Below are positions 9,526-62,080 of a DNA stretch of 64,000 nucleotides, piece by piece. The notes under the pieces are model-generated. The model worked only from the letters and a program-made list of their open reading frames with translations, did not search any database and was not told the DNA's origin. Origin of the DNA: a virus; IMG/VR virus record IMGVR_UViG_3300026484_000095, positions 45,820-109,819 of that record, one strand, 5' to 3'. The translations under genes and the position numbers were made by a program. The stretch's first letter is position 1. Each line of letters begins with the position of its first letter.

Positions 9526-9897
9526 ATGAATTTAGGTAAATCACATTTAACACACTATAAAAAGATAAAGTTGAATAAGGATATTTCATTGAGATATTTC
9601 TTTACCTTTGAGGATAGACTTAACCTGAATGGTAAGTGGGTTATTAAATCCCACAGCACAAAAGAGTACGGTATTATAGATGAGAGAACTGCAAGACTTA
9701 TTGCCACAGCTCATAACAAGACCTTAGATGATTATAAAGAGATTATGGGTCGCTATGTAGCTAATATGTCAGGGACTGGTTCTGTATATAGAAAAGTGAT
9801 TATATCTAACAATGAGAAAAAAGATAAAGCTAAGTTTACTTATGAACCTAATGTAAAGGTTACAGAGATTGATAAATCACAAAAAACAAAGGAGTAA
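9526..9897 (+). CDS. Hypothetical protein just upstream of recA
   Basis: 123 residues, not recognised. It contains a mixed alpha/beta pattern (ISLRYFFTFEDRLNLNGKW, then DERTARLIATAHNKT) and a charged C terminus. The ATG follows AAGGAGC. It ends two bases before the start of the recA N-terminal ORF, so it is very likely in the same operon. Confidence 0.65.
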   Translation: MNLGKSHLTHYKKIKLNKDISLRYFFTFEDRLNLNGKWVIKSHSTKEYGIIDERTARLIATAHNKTLDDYKEIMGRYVANMSGTGSVYRKVIISNNEKKDKAKFTYEPNVKVTEIDKSQKTKE

Positions 9898-9899
9898 AA

Positions 9900-10181
9900 A
9901 TGGCATTTGATGAAAAGACCTTAAAGGCACTTAGCTCAAAGTATGCAAAAAAGAATGAAGATTTTATCTATAACCCTAACAGAGTTTTAGAGGGGGCTTC
10001 AACTGGTTCAGTTATTGCTGATACAGTTATAGGGCAAGAGGGTATGCTTTTAAAAGGCAGAATGACAGAGGTGTTTGGACCTGAGAGTTGTGTTACAGCA
10101 GATACAATGGTTGAGGTTAGAATTGATGGTGTGGAAAGACTTATCCCTATTATAGAATTACAAGGCTTATTAAATGGGTAA
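9900..10181 (+). CDS. recA: RecA N-terminal extein fused to a split-intein N fragment
   Basis: First half of a fractured RecA recombinase. Residues 1-63 end in GRMTEVFGPES, the first part of the RecA Walker A (GPESSGKTT). Residue 64 is Cys1 of an intein, CVTADTMVEVRIDG, which is intein block A. The ORF stops 30 residues later at TAA (10179-10181), before block B. The matching intein C fragment and the rest of RecA are at 11019-12521, with an endonuclease ORF between. Trans-splicing would rejoin GPES with SGKTT exactly. The ATG of the endonuclease overlaps the last codons, so the ORFs are translationally coupled. The 30-residue N fragment is much shorter than in canonical split inteins such as DnaE. 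Confidence 0.92.
   Translation: MAFDEKTLKALSSKYAKKNEDFIYNPNRVLEGASTGSVIADTVIGQEGMLLKGRMTEVFGPESCVTADTMVEVRIDGVERLIPIIELQGLLNG
10089..10178 (+). other. Split intein, N fragment (30 residues)
   Basis: Cys1 at 10089-10091 opens block A. The fragment holds only the first beta strands of the Hint fold. The TxxH of block B is on the C fragment, so the split lies between blocks A and B. Confidence 0.9.
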
Positions 10182-11022
10182 AAGACTTTCGGATTTAGAT
10201 ATTATAGACGAGTGTAGAAGCTTAGGTCTTAAAGATATAGTTATCTATAGAGAGGAGTATAAGCCTCCGAGAGTGAGTTATATATGTACTTGTGGAGCTA
10301 AAGTCCAAAACAAAAATTGGTATAAAATAAAACACGAAAATCAATTTTTGTGTAAGGCTTGTTCTGACGACATAAGAAGTCAGGCTCAAATTAAATACTC
10401 TAAAAAAGTGATAAAAGGTAGGTTAAGTGAAGTTTCTAATGATAAACCCATAAAGATAAATGAGGGTATAAAGTCTGTTAGCGAGATACATTGTGAGTCT
10501 TGCAGTACTGTATACTATATTAGAAATGAGGAAATCTTTGCTTCTTACTTTAAAGGTCATCCTGATTGTTCTTATAAGCTGAAAATTAAATCTAAAGGAG
10601 AGTACTTCATAAAGGAATTATTGGATTCTTATAATATTAATTACTTACACAATAAATCTTTTAAGTCTTTAGGAATAGATAGTTTATTGAGATTTGATTT
10701 TTACCTACCTAATTTCAATTTAATAATTGAGTTTGATGGTATTCAACACTTCTCAAAAAAAGAATTAAAGAGGGTCGGTTATAACATAAATTCTAGTAAA
10801 TTTACAAGTAGAAAAGATTTATTCAAAGACCAAAGGCTAAGGGATTTCACTAAAAATCATCTTTGTTTAGATAATGATATTAATATACTTAGAATCCCTG
10901 CTTGGCATTTAGGTAAATTAAAAGAGATTCTACTTCCTATATTCACAAGAGAAGATGTAATTGAGGGCTTATATTACACTGATGATAGTTTCTATAAAAA
11001 AGGTTCAAGGAGATTAATATGA
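10174..11022 (+). CDS. Vsr-like (EDxHD) homing endonuclease inside the recA locus
   Basis: 282 residues with two Cys-pair zinc-binding regions near the N terminus (CTCG...CKAC, and CESC...HPDC) followed by a PD-(D/E)xK/Vsr-like nuclease core: GEYFIKELL, LRFDFYLPNFNLIIEFDG, IQHF, then a downstream RD and INILRIP. The E-D-x-H-D arrangement matches the endonuclease family reported between the halves of fractured genes. It overlaps the upstream ORF by 8 bases and the downstream ORF by 4 (ATGA), so all three are read in sequence. Its expected role is to cut intein-free recA alleles and spread the cassette. Confidence 0.85.
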   Translation: MGKRLSDLDIIDECRSLGLKDIVIYREEYKPPRVSYICTCGAKVQNKNWYKIKHENQFLCKACSDDIRSQAQIKYSKKVIKGRLSEVSNDKPIKINEGIKSVSEIHCESCSTVYYIRNEEIFASYFKGHPDCSYKLKIKSKGEYFIKELLDSYNINYLHNKSFKSLGIDSLLRFDFYLPNFNLIIEFDGIQHFSKKELKRVGYNINSSKFTSRKDLFKDQRLRDFTKNHLCLDNDINILRIPAWHLGKLKEILLPIFTREDVIEGLYYTDDSFYKKGSRRLI

Positions 11023-11345
11023 AGATAGAAATAAACACACCTGATGGGTGGCAAGAGGTAAGAAACTTCCAAGATAAAGGATTTCAACATAGTATAAGAG
11101 TGGGTTTCTTCCGACCTGATAATCGTGAGATTATTTATGTTACCTGCTCTATTATGCACAGATTCCTATTATCAACTGGAGAGTGGATAGAGGCTGATTT
11201 ACTCACAGAAGGTCATTTTATCCAATCTAAATGGGGTAATCTAAAATTTATGGCAAGAACAGATATGGGAGAACAACCTGTATATGACATAGAGGTAAAG
11301 CACCCTAATCATAGATATTATACAAATGGTATTGTTTCTCACAAT
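11019..11345 (+). other. Split intein, C fragment (109 residues)
   Basis: Contains block B as VTCSIMHRF (T43 to H47 of the ORF), block F as PVYDIEVKHPNHRYYTNG and block G as IVSHN, with splice-site Asn109 followed by the +1 Ser110 of RecA. All catalytic positions needed for protein splicing are present. Confidence 0.92.
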
Positions 11346-12521
11346 TCGGGAAAAACAACAATATGTTATCAGTCGATAGCAAGTGCACTGCAAAAGGGTT
11401 GGGTCGGTTGTATGTTCGATAATGAGCAGACTTTTGATAGTGATTATGCTCGTGCTTTAGGTGTAGAGATAGGAGAGAATTTTCAAGTGTTCCAACCTGA
11501 TGATGCCGAAGAAGCAGAAGCTATATTCAATGAACTAGTCGGTATTGGTAAAGATGGTAAAACAAAAACACCTCTTCTCCCTGATATGGATTTTATAATT
11601 ATTGATAGTATCACAGCTTGGGCACCTCGTAAATTGATGGCTATTGAAAATTCAACTGGTGAAGGTCAAACAAAAGGATTGCACGCCGCTTATTGGACTA
11701 ATTTCAGTCGTAAGTTACAGATAGCTATTAAAAAGAGAAAGATTGCTTGTCTATGCACTAATCAGGTTCGTAACAAGTTGCAGATGGGTGGCTCGTTTCA
11801 AGCACAAGCTATGAAAGACACTGGTATCGGTGCAGGTTTCAGTCAAGATGCAGGGTGGACTACAACTGGTGGTAATGCTCTTAGATTTTATATGTCTGTG
11901 AGAACTCTAATGTATCAAGCTAAGAAGCTGAAAGAGACGAGAGTTATTAGAGGTGTAGAAACAGATGTAGACGAAGCACATTGGGTGGAGTTCAAAAATG
12001 TTAAAAACAAAGTATCAGCACCTTTTAGAAAAGCTAGATTGGTTCTTAGATATGGTGTAGGAACTGATGATATTCCTCCTATGATGGAGTATCTTAAATT
12101 GAATGGTATCATAACAAATGCAGGTGCTAACTTGATGTATAAGTCAAGTGACGGTAGTTGTGATGTTAAAGAGTTCGGAGCTAAGAAGTTCGATAAGGCT
12201 ATGAAAGACCCTACTGTTGTTAAAGATATGAGAAAACAATATATAGCATTGAAAAGAGAAGAAGACCCTTATGCAGATGAAGATGAGGACATAGCAGTAT
12301 TCTCTGACGATGAAGATGGAGTGGAGTTCGACGAAGAAGAGGTTGATTTTGATGAAGTAGAAACTGATAATGAAATCGAAGATGAGGAAGAGGACAGTGG
12401 CTCTATAAAAGATTGGTCGTTAGCTGATTTAAAACAACTTGCAAAAGATGAAAAAATCAAAATCGTTGGTAAAGTAACTAAAGAGAAGTTGCTTAAAAAA
12501 TTGTTAAAAATATATGATTAG
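11019..12521 (+). CDS. recA: Intein C fragment plus RecA C-terminal extein
   Basis: The second half of RecA. Residues 1-109 are the intein C part. From Ser110 the RecA sequence resumes with SGKTTICYQSIASAL, then FDNEQTFDSDYARALGVE, Walker B IIIDSITAWAPR, the loop region KDTGIGAGFSQDAGW and the CTNQVR motif. The core is followed by a long acidic linker and a final 36-residue SAP/Rho-N-like module (DWSLADLKQLAKDEKIKI, residues about 465-500), the same module as in the protein at 4290. After splicing, the recombinase would be about 454 residues, promoting strand exchange for recombination-dependent replication and repair. The start is fixed by the ATGA overlap with the endonuclease. Confidence 0.92.
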   Translation: MKIEINTPDGWQEVRNFQDKGFQHSIRVGFFRPDNREIIYVTCSIMHRFLLSTGEWIEADLLTEGHFIQSKWGNLKFMARTDMGEQPVYDIEVKHPNHRYYTNGIVSHNSGKTTICYQSIASALQKGWVGCMFDNEQTFDSDYARALGVEIGENFQVFQPDDAEEAEAIFNELVGIGKDGKTKTPLLPDMDFIIIDSITAWAPRKLMAIENSTGEGQTKGLHAAYWTNFSRKLQIAIKKRKIACLCTNQVRNKLQMGGSFQAQAMKDTGIGAGFSQDAGWTTTGGNALRFYMSVRTLMYQAKKLKETRVIRGVETDVDEAHWVEFKNVKNKVSAPFRKARLVLRYGVGTDDIPPMMEYLKLNGIITNAGANLMYKSSDGSCDVKEFGAKKFDKAMKDPTVVKDMRKQYIALKREEDPYADEDEDIAVFSDDEDGVEFDEEEVDFDEVETDNEIEDEEEDSGSIKDWSLADLKQLAKDEKIKIVGKVTKEKLLKKLLKIYD

Positions 12522-27731: not shown

Positions 27732-29291
27732 ATGGCAAAAGAGTTAGCAGATATATTTGATATTGAAGCAACTGGTGGTGAATCAGTTGAAGCTAAATTG
27801 TCTAAGAAAAGATTACACACTTTAAGAGATATGGTTATCTATAAAGGTAGCCCACTCTTAAATGAAAAGTCTTTCAAAGAAGCATATAACAAATATAAAA
27901 AGTATCTAAAAACAAGATACACGATTTTATTACAAGAAGATAATGAAATTCTTTCAGGTATAGCAATGGCAGCCGCCTATGATTACTATCGCCAAAGAGA
28001 TTATTTCATTAAGTCGAGAGATACTTATGATATTAAAGATTTAACACATTTCTTAAACACTAATCTAAAAAGAATGTTCGATAGAAAAGGTAAGTATGTA
28101 CTTCAAAATAAAGTAGGTATCAATTTCTTAAACTCTTTTGTCAAAACATACATTACATCAACTAGTGTAGATGGTAGAGAGGGTAAAAATCTAAATAAAA
28201 CAGCAGGTAACTGGAAACAGATGTATAGAAGTGCTTTAAAGTCTATGTATCTAGGTGATGATATGACAGCACAAAATGTTTTCAGCACTATTCGTTTTAG
28301 TGATGGTTCTCAAATCCCATCGAATTTTAGACCATTAGCCGCCGCTTTTATCTTTAATAGATATGGTATCGAACCTAACAAAGATGAAAAAGATATTTAT
28401 ATACATTGTAGTTCAGAGGGATTTCTAGGTAGAACATTGGCTACTTATTATTTGGCTTATAACAACCCTGATAAGAATATCCATTATTATACAATAGACC
28501 CTAATCTACAAGTTATAGATGCCTTCGGTAAATTGGAAAAGTGGCTACGAGAAAATATAGCTGATTTAGATAATTGGAAACCTAAGATATTCAATATAGG
28601 TTCAGAGGTCGAGGAAGCTAATTTCTATAAACTGTATGGTAAGAAGTTCCATTGTAGTTTCACAAGCCCACCATATTTTGATTTAGAGAAGTATGCAGAA
28701 ACTTATATTATCTATTCTGTAATGGACTTAGATAACAAGGGTAAGGTTCTTAACTTTAAAGTGAATGGCAAATTGCTTAAAATGAAATATATTGAAGCAG
28801 TTAAAAAATTCAAGGCTGACCCAAGTATATCTATTGAGCTTGATGGGGAGAGTTTCATTAAGACTGAAAAGCTAAGTGAAGATTTAGAAATAGAAACTTC
28901 TAAGGGTAAATGCAAAGTTAAAGATTTAAAATTGGGAGATGTACTTTCTAAATATAGAGTAGTTAAAATTGGTAATGTAGGTCAATCTCATCAATACAAG
29001 ACTTTCAATAGTTGGAATGAGAACTTCCTATCGCCAACTGTTGTCAATATCCGTAATAGTATGGATAAAGGGAGCTATTTAGTTCTTAATGTTGTTGATA
29101 TTAAAACCCATCAAACATTAGAAGCTGATACAGTTAAAATCGCAGAAAGACACTCGTATATGTTAGAAGATACATTGAAGTTGAAACTAAGTCGAGTGCC
29201 TGGTATCGTTTATTTGAAAGATGGCACTAAAATGCTGTTAAGGGAATTTAAAAAGAATTGGGAACCAATTTTCGTTTTCAAAGCTATTTAA
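27732..29291 (+). CDS. SPPY-type DNA methyltransferase with an inserted beta domain
   Basis: 519 residues. The SAM-binding part includes IYIHCSSEGFLGRTLATYY and the DPN of IDPNLQVID; the catalytic motif is TSPPYFDLEKY. After this motif the expected continuation, SHQYKTFNSWNENFLSP and YLVLNVVDI, appears only about 95 residues later. The insert (about residues 330-422) has LEIETSKGKCKVKDLKLGDVL, which looks like a Hint or similar small beta domain but has no Cys nucleophile or HN-Ser end, so it is not an active intein. The C terminus NWEPIFVFKAI is the usual ending. Target base is probably cytosine-N4 or adenine-N6. Confidence 0.75.
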   Translation: MAKELADIFDIEATGGESVEAKLSKKRLHTLRDMVIYKGSPLLNEKSFKEAYNKYKKYLKTRYTILLQEDNEILSGIAMAAAYDYYRQRDYFIKSRDTYDIKDLTHFLNTNLKRMFDRKGKYVLQNKVGINFLNSFVKTYITSTSVDGREGKNLNKTAGNWKQMYRSALKSMYLGDDMTAQNVFSTIRFSDGSQIPSNFRPLAAAFIFNRYGIEPNKDEKDIYIHCSSEGFLGRTLATYYLAYNNPDKNIHYYTIDPNLQVIDAFGKLEKWLRENIADLDNWKPKIFNIGSEVEEANFYKLYGKKFHCSFTSPPYFDLEKYAETYIIYSVMDLDNKGKVLNFKVNGKLLKMKYIEAVKKFKADPSISIELDGESFIKTEKLSEDLEIETSKGKCKVKDLKLGDVLSKYRVVKIGNVGQSHQYKTFNSWNENFLSPTVVNIRNSMDKGSYLVLNVVDIKTHQTLEADTVKIAERHSYMLEDTLKLKLSRVPGIVYLKDGTKMLLREFKKNWEPIFVFKAI

Positions 29292-51109: not shown

Positions 51110-52660
51110 ATGAAGAAAGAAGCTTTTGTAGAACGAGCCAATAAAATTCATAATGGATTATATAAATATGACAATTTACCTCAAATTGTAAAAGTAAAAA
51201 ATAAATATGATATATTATGTCATTCTTGTAATTCCTTATTTAATCAACAACTACAGTCCCACTTGGCTGGTAGAGGCTGCCCTAATTGTAGAGGGGGGAT
51301 AAAACTACCCTTACAATTCTATATAGATAAATGCAGGGAAAATAATAAAGACTATTCCAAAATTGCTTTTAAAGATAATGGTATTGAAGCTAAGTGTAAT
51401 AAATGTGGCAACTTGATATTCAAGAAAAATAAAAATCATATCTATACTAAGGGTTGTAAATTTTGTGCCAATATGAAAATGAAGCAATTTAAAACCAAGA
51501 CCTTAGAGGACCTATCAATACCAAAAGGAACTAAGTTACTAGATTATAAAGGTCATTCACAAAAAGCTGTCCTTTATTGTATAAAGCATAAATGCACCTA
51601 TGAGCAACTTCCTAGTTATATAGGTAAGAAACAAGGCTGTAAATATTGTAATTCCAAACTAAAAGATTTAGATTATTTTGAAAGTAGAGTTGATTTAGAT
51701 TTATGGGATACAACTGATTCAGTTTATAAAGGTGCTAAGTCTTACATAACTGTTAAATGTAAAAAGTGTAATCATATTCAGATTAAAGAAGCTGGTAGTT
51801 TAATGCAAAGAACTGCAGGGTGTTCTAAATGCTCTAACTCATTCAATTCTTCTAAAGAGCAGAAAGAGTTATCAGATTGGTTATCTTCTTATACAGATGT
51901 ACAATTAAGCTACAGACCTAAATGGATGAAAGGTAAGGAGCTAGATATTTACCTCCCTAAGTTTAATTTTGCTATAGAGTACAACGGAGTATACTGGCAT
52001 AGCTCTCATTTTAAGAGCAGAAATTATCATAAAAGAAAAACTGATTTATGCAATGCAAATAATGTAAATCTATTTCATATTTGGAGTGACCTTTGGTTCA
52101 AAAAGAAAAGTCTTATAAAATCTATGCTATTGAATAAATTGGGTATTACTCCTTTTGTAATAGGTGCTAGAAAGTGTAATATAAGGAAAGTAACTATGCA
52201 GGATTCATTTGATTTCTTAAACTTAAATCATCTCCAAGGTGGTAATAAAGGTAGCATAATCAGTTATGGTTTATTTTATGATAATGAACTATTATCTATA
52301 ATGACCTTTAGACATAGAAAGGATTGGGAGCTAGTTAAGTTTGCTACCAAGACCTATACATTAGTTCAAGGTGGTTTTTCCAAATTGTTAAAGTATTTCA
52401 TAAAAGAACATTCTTGCAAAACCTTATACTCCTTTATAGATAGGTCTTGGTCTTTAGGTAATGTTTATTATAGAAATGGTTTCAAGACTATAAAAACCAT
52501 ACGACCTGATTATGTTTATATTAGTCCTAATAAAATAAATAGATTTCATAAGTCTATTTTAAGACAGGAAGAAAAGAATAGACAACTAAATTCTTATTTA
52601 AAAATCTATAATTCAGGTTTAATAAAAGTTATATGGAGGGACTCCTATGGCTTTAGTTGA
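51110..52660 (+). CDS. Zinc-ribbon plus Vsr-like homing endonuclease next to terminase
   Basis: 516 residues. Four zinc-ribbon-like repeats (CHSCN...CPNC, CNKCGN...CKFC, CIKHKC...CKYC, CKKCNH...CSKC) are followed by an EDxHD/Vsr-like nuclease core: EQKELSDWL, ELDIYLPKFNFAIEYNG and YWHS, NVNLFHIWSD. A C-terminal domain (QGGNKGSIISYGLFYDNE, FIDRSWSLGNVYYRNGF) is shared with the endonuclease at 60079. It starts on the upstream stop, its 3' end overlaps the terminase start by 14 bases, and the terminase RBS (GGAGGG) lies inside it. It has probably been inserted between the upstream gene and terL. Confidence 0.85.
   Translation: MKKEAFVERANKIHNGLYKYDNLPQIVKVKNKYDILCHSCNSLFNQQLQSHLAGRGCPNCRGGIKLPLQFYIDKCRENNKDYSKIAFKDNGIEAKCNKCGNLIFKKNKNHIYTKGCKFCANMKMKQFKTKTLEDLSIPKGTKLLDYKGHSQKAVLYCIKHKCTYEQLPSYIGKKQGCKYCNSKLKDLDYFESRVDLDLWDTTDSVYKGAKSYITVKCKKCNHIQIKEAGSLMQRTAGCSKCSNSFNSSKEQKELSDWLSSYTDVQLSYRPKWMKGKELDIYLPKFNFAIEYNGVYWHSSHFKSRNYHKRKTDLCNANNVNLFHIWSDLWFKKKSLIKSMLLNKLGITPFVIGARKCNIRKVTMQDSFDFLNLNHLQGGNKGSIISYGLFYDNELLSIMTFRHRKDWELVKFATKTYTLVQGGFSKLLKYFIKEHSCKTLYSFIDRSWSLGNVYYRNGFKTIKTIRPDYVYISPNKINRFHKSILRQEEKNRQLNSYLKIYNSGLIKVIWRDSYGFS
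52022..52084 (+). repeat. 63-bp near-identical repeat (copy 1)
   Basis: Matches 60682-60744 with two mismatches in 63 bases, inside the two related endonuclease genes at the KRKTDLCNANNVNLFHIW core. Confidence 0.85.
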
Positions 52661-60078: not shown

Positions 60079-61326
60079 ATGAACAGAGGTAATGAAACTC
60101 AAAAGAGAAATTCTTTAGAGAAATTTATGAAGTGGGTTGAAGATAATTCAGACTACACTTCAAATTTTGTATATCATTATGATACTTATATTAATGCTAC
60201 AAAGGGTTTAGAAGTAACTTGTTTAAAACATAATGAGAAATTTAGAAATAGTTTAGCTAGACTAAAAGAGGGTAGAAGCTGTAAAAGATGTTACTACGAA
60301 AAGTTATCTAAAGCCCAATTTAATAACCGTTCTTACAGTATAGAGGAATTGGAAAAAAGATTCCCTACTATATCTTTTGATGAAGCTGAATACATTAATG
60401 CAGTAACTCCTATGAAGCTTTACTGTAAAATACATAAAGAGTATTTTTATAAAGATTATGACCATCTTATAAGGGGTCAGGGCTGTAAAAAGTGTTCAAA
60501 TAAAGGGGTATCTAAGGCTGAGAAAGACTTAGCAGAATGGATAAATTATTATACTCCTATTATAGAGAATTATAAACCTAAATGGTTACAAGGTATGGAG
60601 TTAGATATATTCATACCTGAATTTAATCTAGCGATTGAATATAACGGTCTTTATTGGCATAGTGAAGATTTTTTAGATAAGAATTATCATAAAAGAAAGA
60701 CTGATTTATGTAATGCAAATAATGTAAATCTATTTCATATTTGGGAAGATGAACTTCGAGATAAGACTGATATAATTTTATCAATGTTATTACATAAAAT
60801 GAAATTAACTCCTTTTACCATAGGTGCTAGAGAATGTACTGTAAAAGTTGTTCCTCTTAAAGAAGCTAATGAGTTTTTAGAGAATAATCACTTATTAGGT
60901 GGAAATAGGGCTGTTACCATAAAAGGTCTTTATTATGATAATGAGCTATTGAGTGTTATGACTATGCGAAAAGATGGTGATTATTATAACCTAACAAAGT
61001 TTGCTAACAAAACTTATACAAATGTTCAAGGTGGATTTAGTAAGCTATTAAAGTCTTTTGAGTTAGACCGACCTATAATCTCTTATGCAGAAGATAGATG
61101 GAGTTTGGGTAACTTATATTCTCAAAATGGGTTTAACTTCTCCCATAAATCTCCTCCTAATTATTTTTATGTAAAAGATGGAATTTCTTATAATAAAAAA
61201 TTATTCACTAAGAAGAGATTAAAGAAGCTATATAATTGTAAGGTAGATAATGAGAGGGACTTTATGTATATGCAAGGGTATAGAAGAGTTTATGAGAGTG
61301 GACTCTCTTGTTATATAAAGGATTGA
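60079..61326 (+). CDS. Vsr-like homing endonuclease before the Pol A fragment
   Basis: 415 residues, paralogue of the protein at 51110 but with fewer zinc ribbons (CLKHNEK...CKRCYYEK, CKIHKE...CKKCSN). Nuclease core MELDIFIPEFNLAIEYNG and YWHSED, then KTDLCNANNVNLFHIWED, and the shared C-terminal domain. Its stop is one base from the ATG of the polymerase fragment. It probably invaded, and fractured, the Pol A gene. Confidence 0.85.
   Translation: MNRGNETQKRNSLEKFMKWVEDNSDYTSNFVYHYDTYINATKGLEVTCLKHNEKFRNSLARLKEGRSCKRCYYEKLSKAQFNNRSYSIEELEKRFPTISFDEAEYINAVTPMKLYCKIHKEYFYKDYDHLIRGQGCKKCSNKGVSKAEKDLAEWINYYTPIIENYKPKWLQGMELDIFIPEFNLAIEYNGLYWHSEDFLDKNYHKRKTDLCNANNVNLFHIWEDELRDKTDIILSMLLHKMKLTPFTIGARECTVKVVPLKEANEFLENNHLLGGNRAVTIKGLYYDNELLSVMTMRKDGDYYNLTKFANKTYTNVQGGFSKLLKSFELDRPIISYAEDRWSLGNLYSQNGFNFSHKSPPNYFYVKDGISYNKKLFTKKRLKKLYNCKVDNERDFMYMQGYRRVYESGLSCYIKD
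60682..60744 (+). repeat. 63-bp near-identical repeat (copy 2)
   Basis: Partner of 52022-52084; see there. Confidence 0.85.
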
Positions 61327-61327
61327 T

Positions 61328-62080
61328 ATGTCAGATATTTTAGATAAGATAAAAAATTATGATGATAATGAAAAACCTCATTTCCCCCCAATCGGCGATT
61401 GGCACGGAATCAATGCTACAGCATTTTTCGGCTTCGATAAACTAAAACAATTATATCTTAGTAGTAAAGATGGTATATTGGAGTATGAAAAGAAATACCG
61501 TAAGAAAGCTAAGGGGATGGGTCTAGGTCTGAACTATGGGGGTACTTATAAGGTTCTTCAATCTATTCTAGGAGGTTCAGAAGCAGAAAGTATCAAATTG
61601 TTTTCTAACTATTTCAAACATCTTAAATACTTTAAAGCTCACTTAGATAAGCTAGTAAAAGAAGCTAATAAGGTGTTATATGTTAAAACATTCTTAGGTC
61701 GTAGATTATACCTACCCTCATTAGGAAGTGAAAATTGGCGAGAGAAAGCTAAGGGTCGTAATAAGATATATAACTCTCCTATCCAAGCATTTGGTGCCGA
61801 GACAATTAAACTTATTTTAAATGCTGTCGGTAACTGGGTAGAGAGTAATGATTTAAGTCAACTGCATAATAACAATATATGTAAGAATTATTATCAAAGA
61901 ATTGTATCAATCGACATCAAAGAATGTGATGAGTTCTTAGAGTCATATTTGGAAACAATACCTAATGGCAATGTTAAGCTATTGGTAAAAGATGGTAACA
62001 AGGTAGTTAAAGAGTTCGACAGAAATCTAAAATTATCTATGAGAGATATAAACAATTTTAATATGAACTTGGAGTGGTAA
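61328..62080 (+). CDS. Family A DNA polymerase, fragment with motif B
   Basis: 250 residues. It starts about 20 residues after the expected motif A (DYSQIELR), which is absent. It has GDWHGINATAFFGF, motif B region KKAKGMGLGLNYGG, KTFLGRRLYLPSL and NSPIQAFGAETIKLILNAV of E. coli Pol I type. Motif C is in the next ORF. The N-terminal palm, exonuclease and motif A are not in this window. So this is part of a split polymerase that must combine with another product. Confidence 0.85.
   Translation: MSDILDKIKNYDDNEKPHFPPIGDWHGINATAFFGFDKLKQLYLSSKDGILEYEKKYRKKAKGMGLGLNYGGTYKVLQSILGGSEAESIKLFSNYFKHLKYFKAHLDKLVKEANKVLYVKTFLGRRLYLPSLGSENWREKAKGRNKIYNSPIQAFGAETIKLILNAVGNWVESNDLSQLHNNNICKNYYQRIVSIDIKECDEFLESYLETIPNGNVKLLVKDGNKVVKEFDRNLKLSMRDINNFNMNLEW

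What the first reader, a model, noticed from the sequence alone, without database searches (positions are those of the whole stretch)
9900..12521. Fractured recA: split intein with a homing endonuclease ORF between the halves
Seen: RecA ends at GPES plus Cys1 of an intein, then a Vsr-like endonuclease ORF, then the intein C part ending in SHN followed by SGKTT. Joining them gives GPESSGKTT exactly. Known: this layout (N-extein with intein N, EDxHD endonuclease, intein C with C-extein) is the fractured-gene arrangement described from environmental phage metagenomes by Dassa, Pietrokovski and colleagues. Inference: RecA is made by protein trans-splicing, and the three overlapping ORFs are one mobile cassette. 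A recombinase broken at its Walker A would be inactive until spliced, so splicing could control recombination timing.
Basis: partly seen in the sequence, partly recalled or inferred. Interest (0 to 1): 0.9.

Follow-up and report, generated by a model that had tools for sequence, protein, structure and literature searches.

The report
Phage RecA split by an intein
A bacterial virus makes its DNA-recombination protein RecA as two pieces that most likely stitch themselves together at the ATP-binding loop through a naturally split, self-cutting protein element (an intein), with the gene for a DNA-cutting 'homing' enzyme lodged between the pieces; this is a new variant of a known arrangement.

Summary
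Confirmed and extended. The phage recA is broken exactly at its Walker A motif (GPES|SGKTT). The N half ends in a 30-aa intein-N starting at Cys1. The C half starts with a 109-aa intein-C carrying all expected splicing residues and ending His-Asn|Ser. A 282-aa Vsr-like endonuclease ORF lies between and overlaps both. A syntenic relative (L003) has the uninterrupted recA, i.e. the empty site. The 109,819-bp record holds no second recA.

The closest solved relative is VidaL (sequence E 2e-17; fold TM 0.88), an atypically split intein whose crystallised construct carries the same Walker-A flanks. Homologous UvsX inteins at this site occur in viral contigs as contiguous, split, and split-plus-endonuclease forms, and in isolated Pseudomonas jumbo phages (PA5oct, MIJ3, Paride).

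The window differs in three ways: its recA is not of the UvsX lineage; the break lies after helix 1 instead of strand 2, unique among 77 related intein-C ORFs; and the endonuclease belongs to the Kayvirus group-I-intron VSR family.

Best explanation: constitutive protein trans-splicing of RecA, with the cassette spread by homing. Splicing as a recombination switch is untested speculation. New variant of a known kind.

The parts
9888..9894 (+). SD-like AAAGGAG ahead of the RecA-N ORF
   Evidence: sequence
9900..10088 (+). RecA N-extein (63 aa, ends ...VFGPES, first half of Walker A)
   Evidence: Pfam RecA 26-64, E 1.3e-4; aligns with intact L003 RecA
10089..10178 (+). Intein-N, 30 aa, Cys1 codon 10089-10091 (stop codon 10179-10181)
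   Evidence: position at the Walker A break, Cys1, colinear with contiguous relatives; not significant by profile alone
10162..10165 (+). weak SD-like AAGG of the endonuclease ORF, inside the IntN coding region
   Evidence: sequence
10174..11022 (+). Vsr-like homing endonuclease ORF, 282 aa; conserved F174 D175 E186 D188 G189 H192 (invariant), D224 K227 R240 (nearly)
   Evidence: phrog_559 E 1.2e-28, phrog_9084 E 1.3e-19; alignment of 49 relatives; AlphaFold plus Foldseek to Vsr
11007..11012 (+). SD-like AAGGAG ahead of the IntC:RecA-C ORF
   Evidence: sequence
11019..11345 (+). Intein-C, 109 aa; C43/H47 (block B), D90 and H98 (block F), H108-N109 (block G)
   Evidence: VidaL 6vgv E 2e-17; TIGR01443; AlphaFold pLDDT 92, TM 0.88 to VidaL; residues invariant in 16 relatives
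11346..12518 (+). RecA C-extein (391 aa, starts Ser+1-GKTT; stop 12519-12521)
   Evidence: Pfam RecA 61-261 E 6.5e-30; 64% identical to L003 over the aligned C-extein

Best explanation
The three ORFs form a fractured recA: a cassette (IntN - endonuclease gene - IntC) inserted between the Glu-Ser and Ser-Gly-Lys codons of the Walker A motif. RecA-N:IntN (93 aa) and IntC:RecA-C (500 aa) are translated separately. The 30-aa IntN docks into IntC and completes a Hint fold. Cys1, the block-B His, block-F Asp/His, His108-Asn109 and Ser+1 then carry out class-1 protein trans-splicing, giving a 454-aa RecA with an uninterrupted GPESSGKTT. The Vsr-type endonuclease cuts recA alleles lacking the cassette at or near that motif, and recombinational repair copies the cassette in (homing). 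Shown: gene layout, empty-site relative, intein homology and fold, intact catalytic residues, endonuclease family. Inferred: splicing activity, endonuclease target, current mobility, and that splicing is constitutive.
For: Exact join with an intact syntenic RecA. IntC matches VidaL by sequence and fold, and VidaL's construct has the same extein flanks ESG/SGK. All splicing residues kept. Joined intein 139 aa, colinear with contiguous relatives of 137-148 aa at the homologous site. No other RecA in the record. Halves open and 59% identical to L003 when joined. The same architecture recurs in UvsX genes of viral contigs and of PA5oct-group phages. Endonuclease intact and of a homing family.
Against: No splicing or cleavage data. 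IntN not significant by profile alone. The only close recA relative is about 59% identical, so recent mobility cannot be shown. Vsr fold match has a weak E-value.
Confidence: 0.88

Rival explanations
1. The RecA halves work without covalent splicing: they assemble non-covalently, as the split NrdA of phage Aeh1 does, and the intein pieces are relics.
For: Phage genes split by homing endonucleases can encode functional two-chain enzymes (PMC2988022).
Against: All intein catalytic residues and the Hint fold are intact; an intein relic would be expected to decay. The break lies inside the P-loop, where two-chain assembly would be hard.
Confidence: 0.05
2. The middle ORF lies in a self-splicing RNA intron nested in a contiguous intein, so one precursor protein is made and splices in cis.
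For: Closest annotated endonuclease relatives include a group I intron endonuclease (phiIPLA-RODI terL).
Against: No Rfam match in the window. The endonuclease ORF overlaps both intein ORFs, leaving no separate room for a ribozyme core. The IntC ORF has its own SD-like sequence and start.
Confidence: 0.03
3. Splicing is a conditional switch (for example sensing ssDNA or redox state) that times recombination during infection.
For: A P-loop intein in P. horikoshii RadA compromises ATPase before splicing, and a P-loop DnaB intein is reversibly inhibited by oxidation (PMC8529194). The splicing residue here is a cysteine.
Against: No direct evidence; P-loop insertion is explained by homing into conserved motifs. 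Empty alleles exist in relatives.
Confidence: 0.08
4. recA is a dead, disrupted gene and the phage relies on host RecA.
For: The P-loop is interrupted and the endonuclease could be a recent insertion.
Against: Joined RecA is 59% identical to intact L003 with open frames throughout; both halves have SD-like sequences; the intein is intact.
Confidence: 0.03

Closest known systems
VidaL, atypically split intein (PDB 6vgv, 6vgw), and its UvsX family
   Same: Homologous intein (E 2e-17, TM 0.88), same Walker A insertion point (ESG|SGK in the VidaL construct), short IntN, Cys1 and Ser+1, endonuclease ORF between the halves in many members.
   Different: Break after helix 1 (30-aa IntN), not after strand 2 (15-19 aa); recA not of the UvsX lineage; unrelated endonuclease family; intein falls outside the UvsX-intein clade in the tree, though a joint clade is not rejected.
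Split UvsX of Pseudomonas phages PA5oct, MIJ3 and Paride (Wroclawvirus)
   Same: Same site, short IntN, long IntC, middle ORF ending in an endonuclease-like domain.
   Different: 17-aa IntN; 477-aa middle ORF without a PHROG match; UvsX-type recombinase. Not described as a split intein in the MIJ3 paper, which reports a PolB one (PMC6892783).
Fractured genes with canonical split inteins (Dassa et al. 2009; cited from memory and from other papers, not held)
   Same: Two gene halves each fused to an intein part with a free-standing homing endonuclease ORF between.
   Different: Those inteins are canonically split (IntN about 100 aa, IntC about 35-40 aa); here the split is atypical.
AceL-TerL and GOS-TerL atypically split inteins
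   Same: Break after helix 1 (S2 position) with a short IntN (PMC13014065).
   Different: Different host gene (terminase), not recA.
Kayvirus-type VSR homing endonucleases of group I introns (phiIPLA-RODI terL; phrog_559)
   Same: Homologous endonuclease, 25-30% identity over Zn-ribbon and EFDG.QH core.
   Different: Carried here between split-intein halves, not in an RNA intron.

Membership tests
Class-1 split intein | Cys/Ser1, block B His, block F Asp/His, block G His-Asn, nucleophile at +1 | tested here: met
   C1, C43/H47, D90, H98, H108-N109, S+1
Class-1 split intein | Hint fold | tested here: met
   IntC model top match VidaL, TM 0.88, rmsd 1.1 A, then other inteins
Class-1 split intein | Exteins join into an uninterrupted homologue | tested here: met
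   L003 GPESSGKTT
Class-1 split intein | Trans-splicing activity | not testable with these tools
   needs co-expression and mass spectrometry
Atypically split inteins | IntN of about 15-37 aa with correspondingly long IntC | tested here: met
   30 and 109 aa; range from PMC13014065
VidaL / UvsX Walker-A inteins | Insertion before Ser-Gly-Lys of Walker A in a RecA-family recombinase | tested here: met
VidaL / UvsX Walker-A inteins | Break after strand 2 (S1, IntN 15-19 aa) | tested here: not met
   window breaks after helix 1
VidaL / UvsX Walker-A inteins | One clade with UvsX inteins | tested here: inconclusive
   placed outside (93/86) on a long branch; joint clade not rejected, AU p 0.44
Fractured gene (Dassa type) | Free-standing endonuclease ORF between split-intein gene halves | tested here: met
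EDxHD homing endonuclease | Vsr-like fold with E, D, H, D residues and similarity to I-Bth0305I | tested here: inconclusive
   invariant E186, D188, H192, near-invariant D224; Vsr match probability 1.00 but E 0.04; no I-Bth0305I hit
Group I intron with VSR endonuclease | Group I ribozyme around the ORF | tested here: not met
   no Rfam match in the window; ORFs overlap with no room for it

The most novel reading that the evidence does not exclude
The Walker A site of RecA-family genes was colonised and split independently here: an intein closer to those of other P-loop ATPases entered a non-UvsX phage recA, broke at the S2 position, and captured a homing endonuclease from a group-I-intron lineage (collaborative homing), converging on the same fractured architecture as VidaL/UvsX.
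Probability: 0.4. Interest if true: 0.6.

Novelty: new variant of a known kind. Interest (0 to 1): 0.5.

Why it matters
It places the protein-engineering intein VidaL in its natural setting: a family of Walker-A inteins in phage recombinases found as contiguous, split, and split-with-endonuclease forms at one site, including in isolated Pseudomonas phages (PA5oct, Paride) where the halves are annotated as separate genes and splicing could be tested directly. The window adds a different break point and a different endonuclease lineage at the same site, which bears on how contiguous inteins become split and how endonucleases are captured. A natural split intein with a 30-aa IntN is also a candidate protein-labelling tool.

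Tried and rejected
Group I intron: no Rfam hit. Second intact recA: none in the record. A close copy of this locus in viral contigs or phages: none found, though records very near the window may be left out. Cellular genome contigs with this intein-C: none. VidaL-type endonucleases as the same family as the window's: rejected; two match phrog_22677 and PA5oct's matches nothing. Placing the window intein inside the UvsX clade: neither favoured nor rejected. UvrD helicase of this phage as a second broken Walker A: rejected, it reads EAVAGSGKST intact. A significant profile hit for the IntN peptide alone: none. Direct homology of the endonuclease to I-Bth0305I: none. In one search the 'l3full' sequence carried an arbitrary four-residue tail typed by mistake; its scores are disregarded, and the comparison rests.

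Full report
Observation. The window contains, on the + strand, a 93-aa ORF (9900-10181), a 282-aa ORF (10174-11022) and a 500-aa ORF (11019-12521), overlapping by 8 and 4 nt. The first ends ...RMTEVFGPES-CVTADTMVEVRIDGVERLIPIIELQGLLNG*. The third begins MKIEINTPDGWQ... and reads ...VYDIEVKHPNHRYYTNGIVSHN-SGKTTICYQS. The first matches the RecA profile at 26-64 and the third at 61-261, so they are consecutive parts of one RecA. No other RecA was found in the 109,819-bp record; the UvsX family adds only a weak match (E 5e-4, G000:22284-22553) that was not followed. The record has no end repeats, so absence from the whole phage is not proven.

Empty site. A scan of viral contigs with the C half found one relative, L003, with an intact RecA reading ...RMTEIFGPESSGKTTFALQS.... 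Gene order is shared (an acidic protein, endonuclease VII-like protein, recA, methyltransferase, SMC-like ATPase). Joined window RecA is 454 aa and 59% identical to it over 451 aligned residues, with no gap at the junction. A more distant RecA in the phage of L097 is also uninterrupted (L328, SLESGGKTT).

Intein. The 109-aa IntC matches VidaL (6vgv) at E 2e-17, gp41-1 at 7e-7 and Mxe GyrA at 5e-5. AlphaFold (pLDDT 92) gives a Hint domain whose top solved match is VidaL (TM 0.88, rmsd 1.1 A). C43/H47 (block B), D90 and H98 (block F) and H108-N109 (block G) are invariant across 16 relatives. The VidaL construct runs from ESG-ALPKEAVVQIRLTKKG to SHASGK, where the alanines evidently replace Cys1 and the last Asn: VidaL sits at the same Walker A position. 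The joined window intein is 139 aa and colinear with contiguous relatives of 137-148 aa, so nothing appears missing or duplicated at the break. The IntN alone gives no significant profile score, as expected for 30 aa; it is identified by position, Cys1 and colinearity.

Family at this site. Scans with intein-C alignments gave 239 and 305 relatives, of which 80 each were kept. Inspection shows UvsX inteins at the Walker A site in three forms: contiguous (L107, L169, L175, L180, L184, L189, L192, L205, L221); split without an endonuclease ORF (L088, L168, L179, L196, L226); split with one (L086, L093, L124, L172, L173, L178, L193, L206, L214, L215). L086 carries the VidaL sequence with a 373-aa ORF between the halves; its near-twin L088 has only a short gap there. 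L190 keeps a 65-aa remnant resembling the end of the L206 endonuclease ORF. The Pseudomonas phages PA5oct, MIJ3, Paride and kin (11 records) have the same break; their annotations list the halves as separate genes, and the MIJ3 paper discusses only a PolB split intein. All 80 best UvsX relatives of PA5oct that were fetched are uninterrupted at this site.

What is different here. The split UvsX members examined break after strand 2 (IntN 15-19 aa). The window breaks after helix 1 (IntN 30 aa); it is the only one of 77 related IntC ORFs that starts within 12 aa of the PDG motif. S1 and S2 break positions are both known in atypically split inteins (PMC13014065). The 22 UvsX inteins form a clade (100/99) and the window falls beside inteins of other P-loop proteins (93/86), but its branch is long and a joint clade is not rejected (AU p 0.44). 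Shared ancestry at this site and independent colonisation both remain open.

Endonuclease. The middle ORF matches phrog_559 and phrog_9084. Its phage homologues include the annotated group I intron VSR endonuclease in terL of Kayvirus phiIPLA-RODI, ORFs within terL of other Herelleviridae, and genes between other genes. Across 49 relatives F174, D175, E186, D188, G189 and H192 are invariant and D224, K227 and R240 nearly so. The model's catalytic core matches Vsr (1cw0, 1vsr: probability 1.00, E 0.04-0.06). Endonuclease ORFs of VidaL-type loci are of another family (phrog_22677). One other member of the window's family lies between the halves of a canonically split PolA intein in L097. Capture of a pre-existing homing endonuclease by an intein (collaborative homing; concept in PMC2988022) would explain this, but that step is inference.

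Mechanism. Both recA halves have SD-like sequences (AAAGGAG, AAGGAG), while the endonuclease has only AAGG inside the IntN coding region, which would fit lower endonuclease expression. I conclude trans-splicing of RecA with homing of the cassette; the splicing arrangement is well supported, current mobility less so. A regulatory role is possible: a P-loop intein compromises RadA ATPase before splicing (PMC8529194). Nothing here supports regulation, and insertion in a conserved P-loop is explained by homing and by selection against imprecise loss (PMC2988022).

Verdict. Observation confirmed; interpretation right in outline, incomplete on intein type and relatives, unsupported on regulation. 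New variant of a known kind. Limits: Dassa 2009 and Taylor 2011 are not in the held library and the primary VidaL papers were not found in it; statements about them rest on other papers' citations or on memory.

Noticed in passing
L004 2161-5206 (Paride), L005 (PA5oct): UvsX of isolated Pseudomonas jumbo phages is split at Walker A by a VidaL-like intein (IntN 17 aa, IntC 128 aa) with a 477-aa ORF between; annotated as separate genes. The C half carries an 'ESI-MS/MS' note in PA5oct.
   Followed up: partly
L086, L088, L190, L206: The VidaL-type split uvsX occurs with (L086) and without (L088) the endonuclease ORF; L190 keeps only a 65-aa remnant resembling the end of the L206 endonuclease.
   Followed up: partly
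L097 2780-5745 and 5767-8070: PolA with a canonically split intein and an endonuclease of the window's family between the halves; the next gene is a UvrD-like helicase with a contiguous intein at Walker A. The window phage's UvrD is uninterrupted.
   Followed up: partly
window 61328-62080 and G000:C1:42451-44226: DNA polymerase A seems to be in separate pieces: an exonuclease-containing 591-aa ORF and a C-terminal piece about 63 kb away, after an endonuclease-like ORF; the profile found only positions 201-325 of the polymerase domain.
   Followed up: partly
window 51110-52660 and 60079-61326: Two large ORFs that look like Hef-type homing endonucleases (EYNGVYWHS / EYNGLYWHS), next to terL and the PolA piece.
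   Followed up: no
window 27732-29291: Methyltransferase-like ORF (SPPY motif) with what looks like an in-frame insert of roughly 90 aa after the motif; no Pfam match.
   Followed up: no
L003 3615-3800: 61-aa zinc-ribbon ORF just upstream of the intact recA, weakly similar to the window endonuclease's N-terminal zinc ribbon (pairwise E 3e-4, 37 residues); possible endonuclease remnant.
   Followed up: partly
L107 5716-7065: UvsX with a contiguous Walker A intein and what looks like the start of a second intein further on (SGGCLKADTLVHMADG).
   Followed up: no
L091 and many other L1xx loci (TGVGKS), L090, L096, L099: Related inteins sit at Walker A motifs of other phage ATPases (helicase-like and others), many with an intein-C ORF starting at the S1-type position.
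   Followed up: partly
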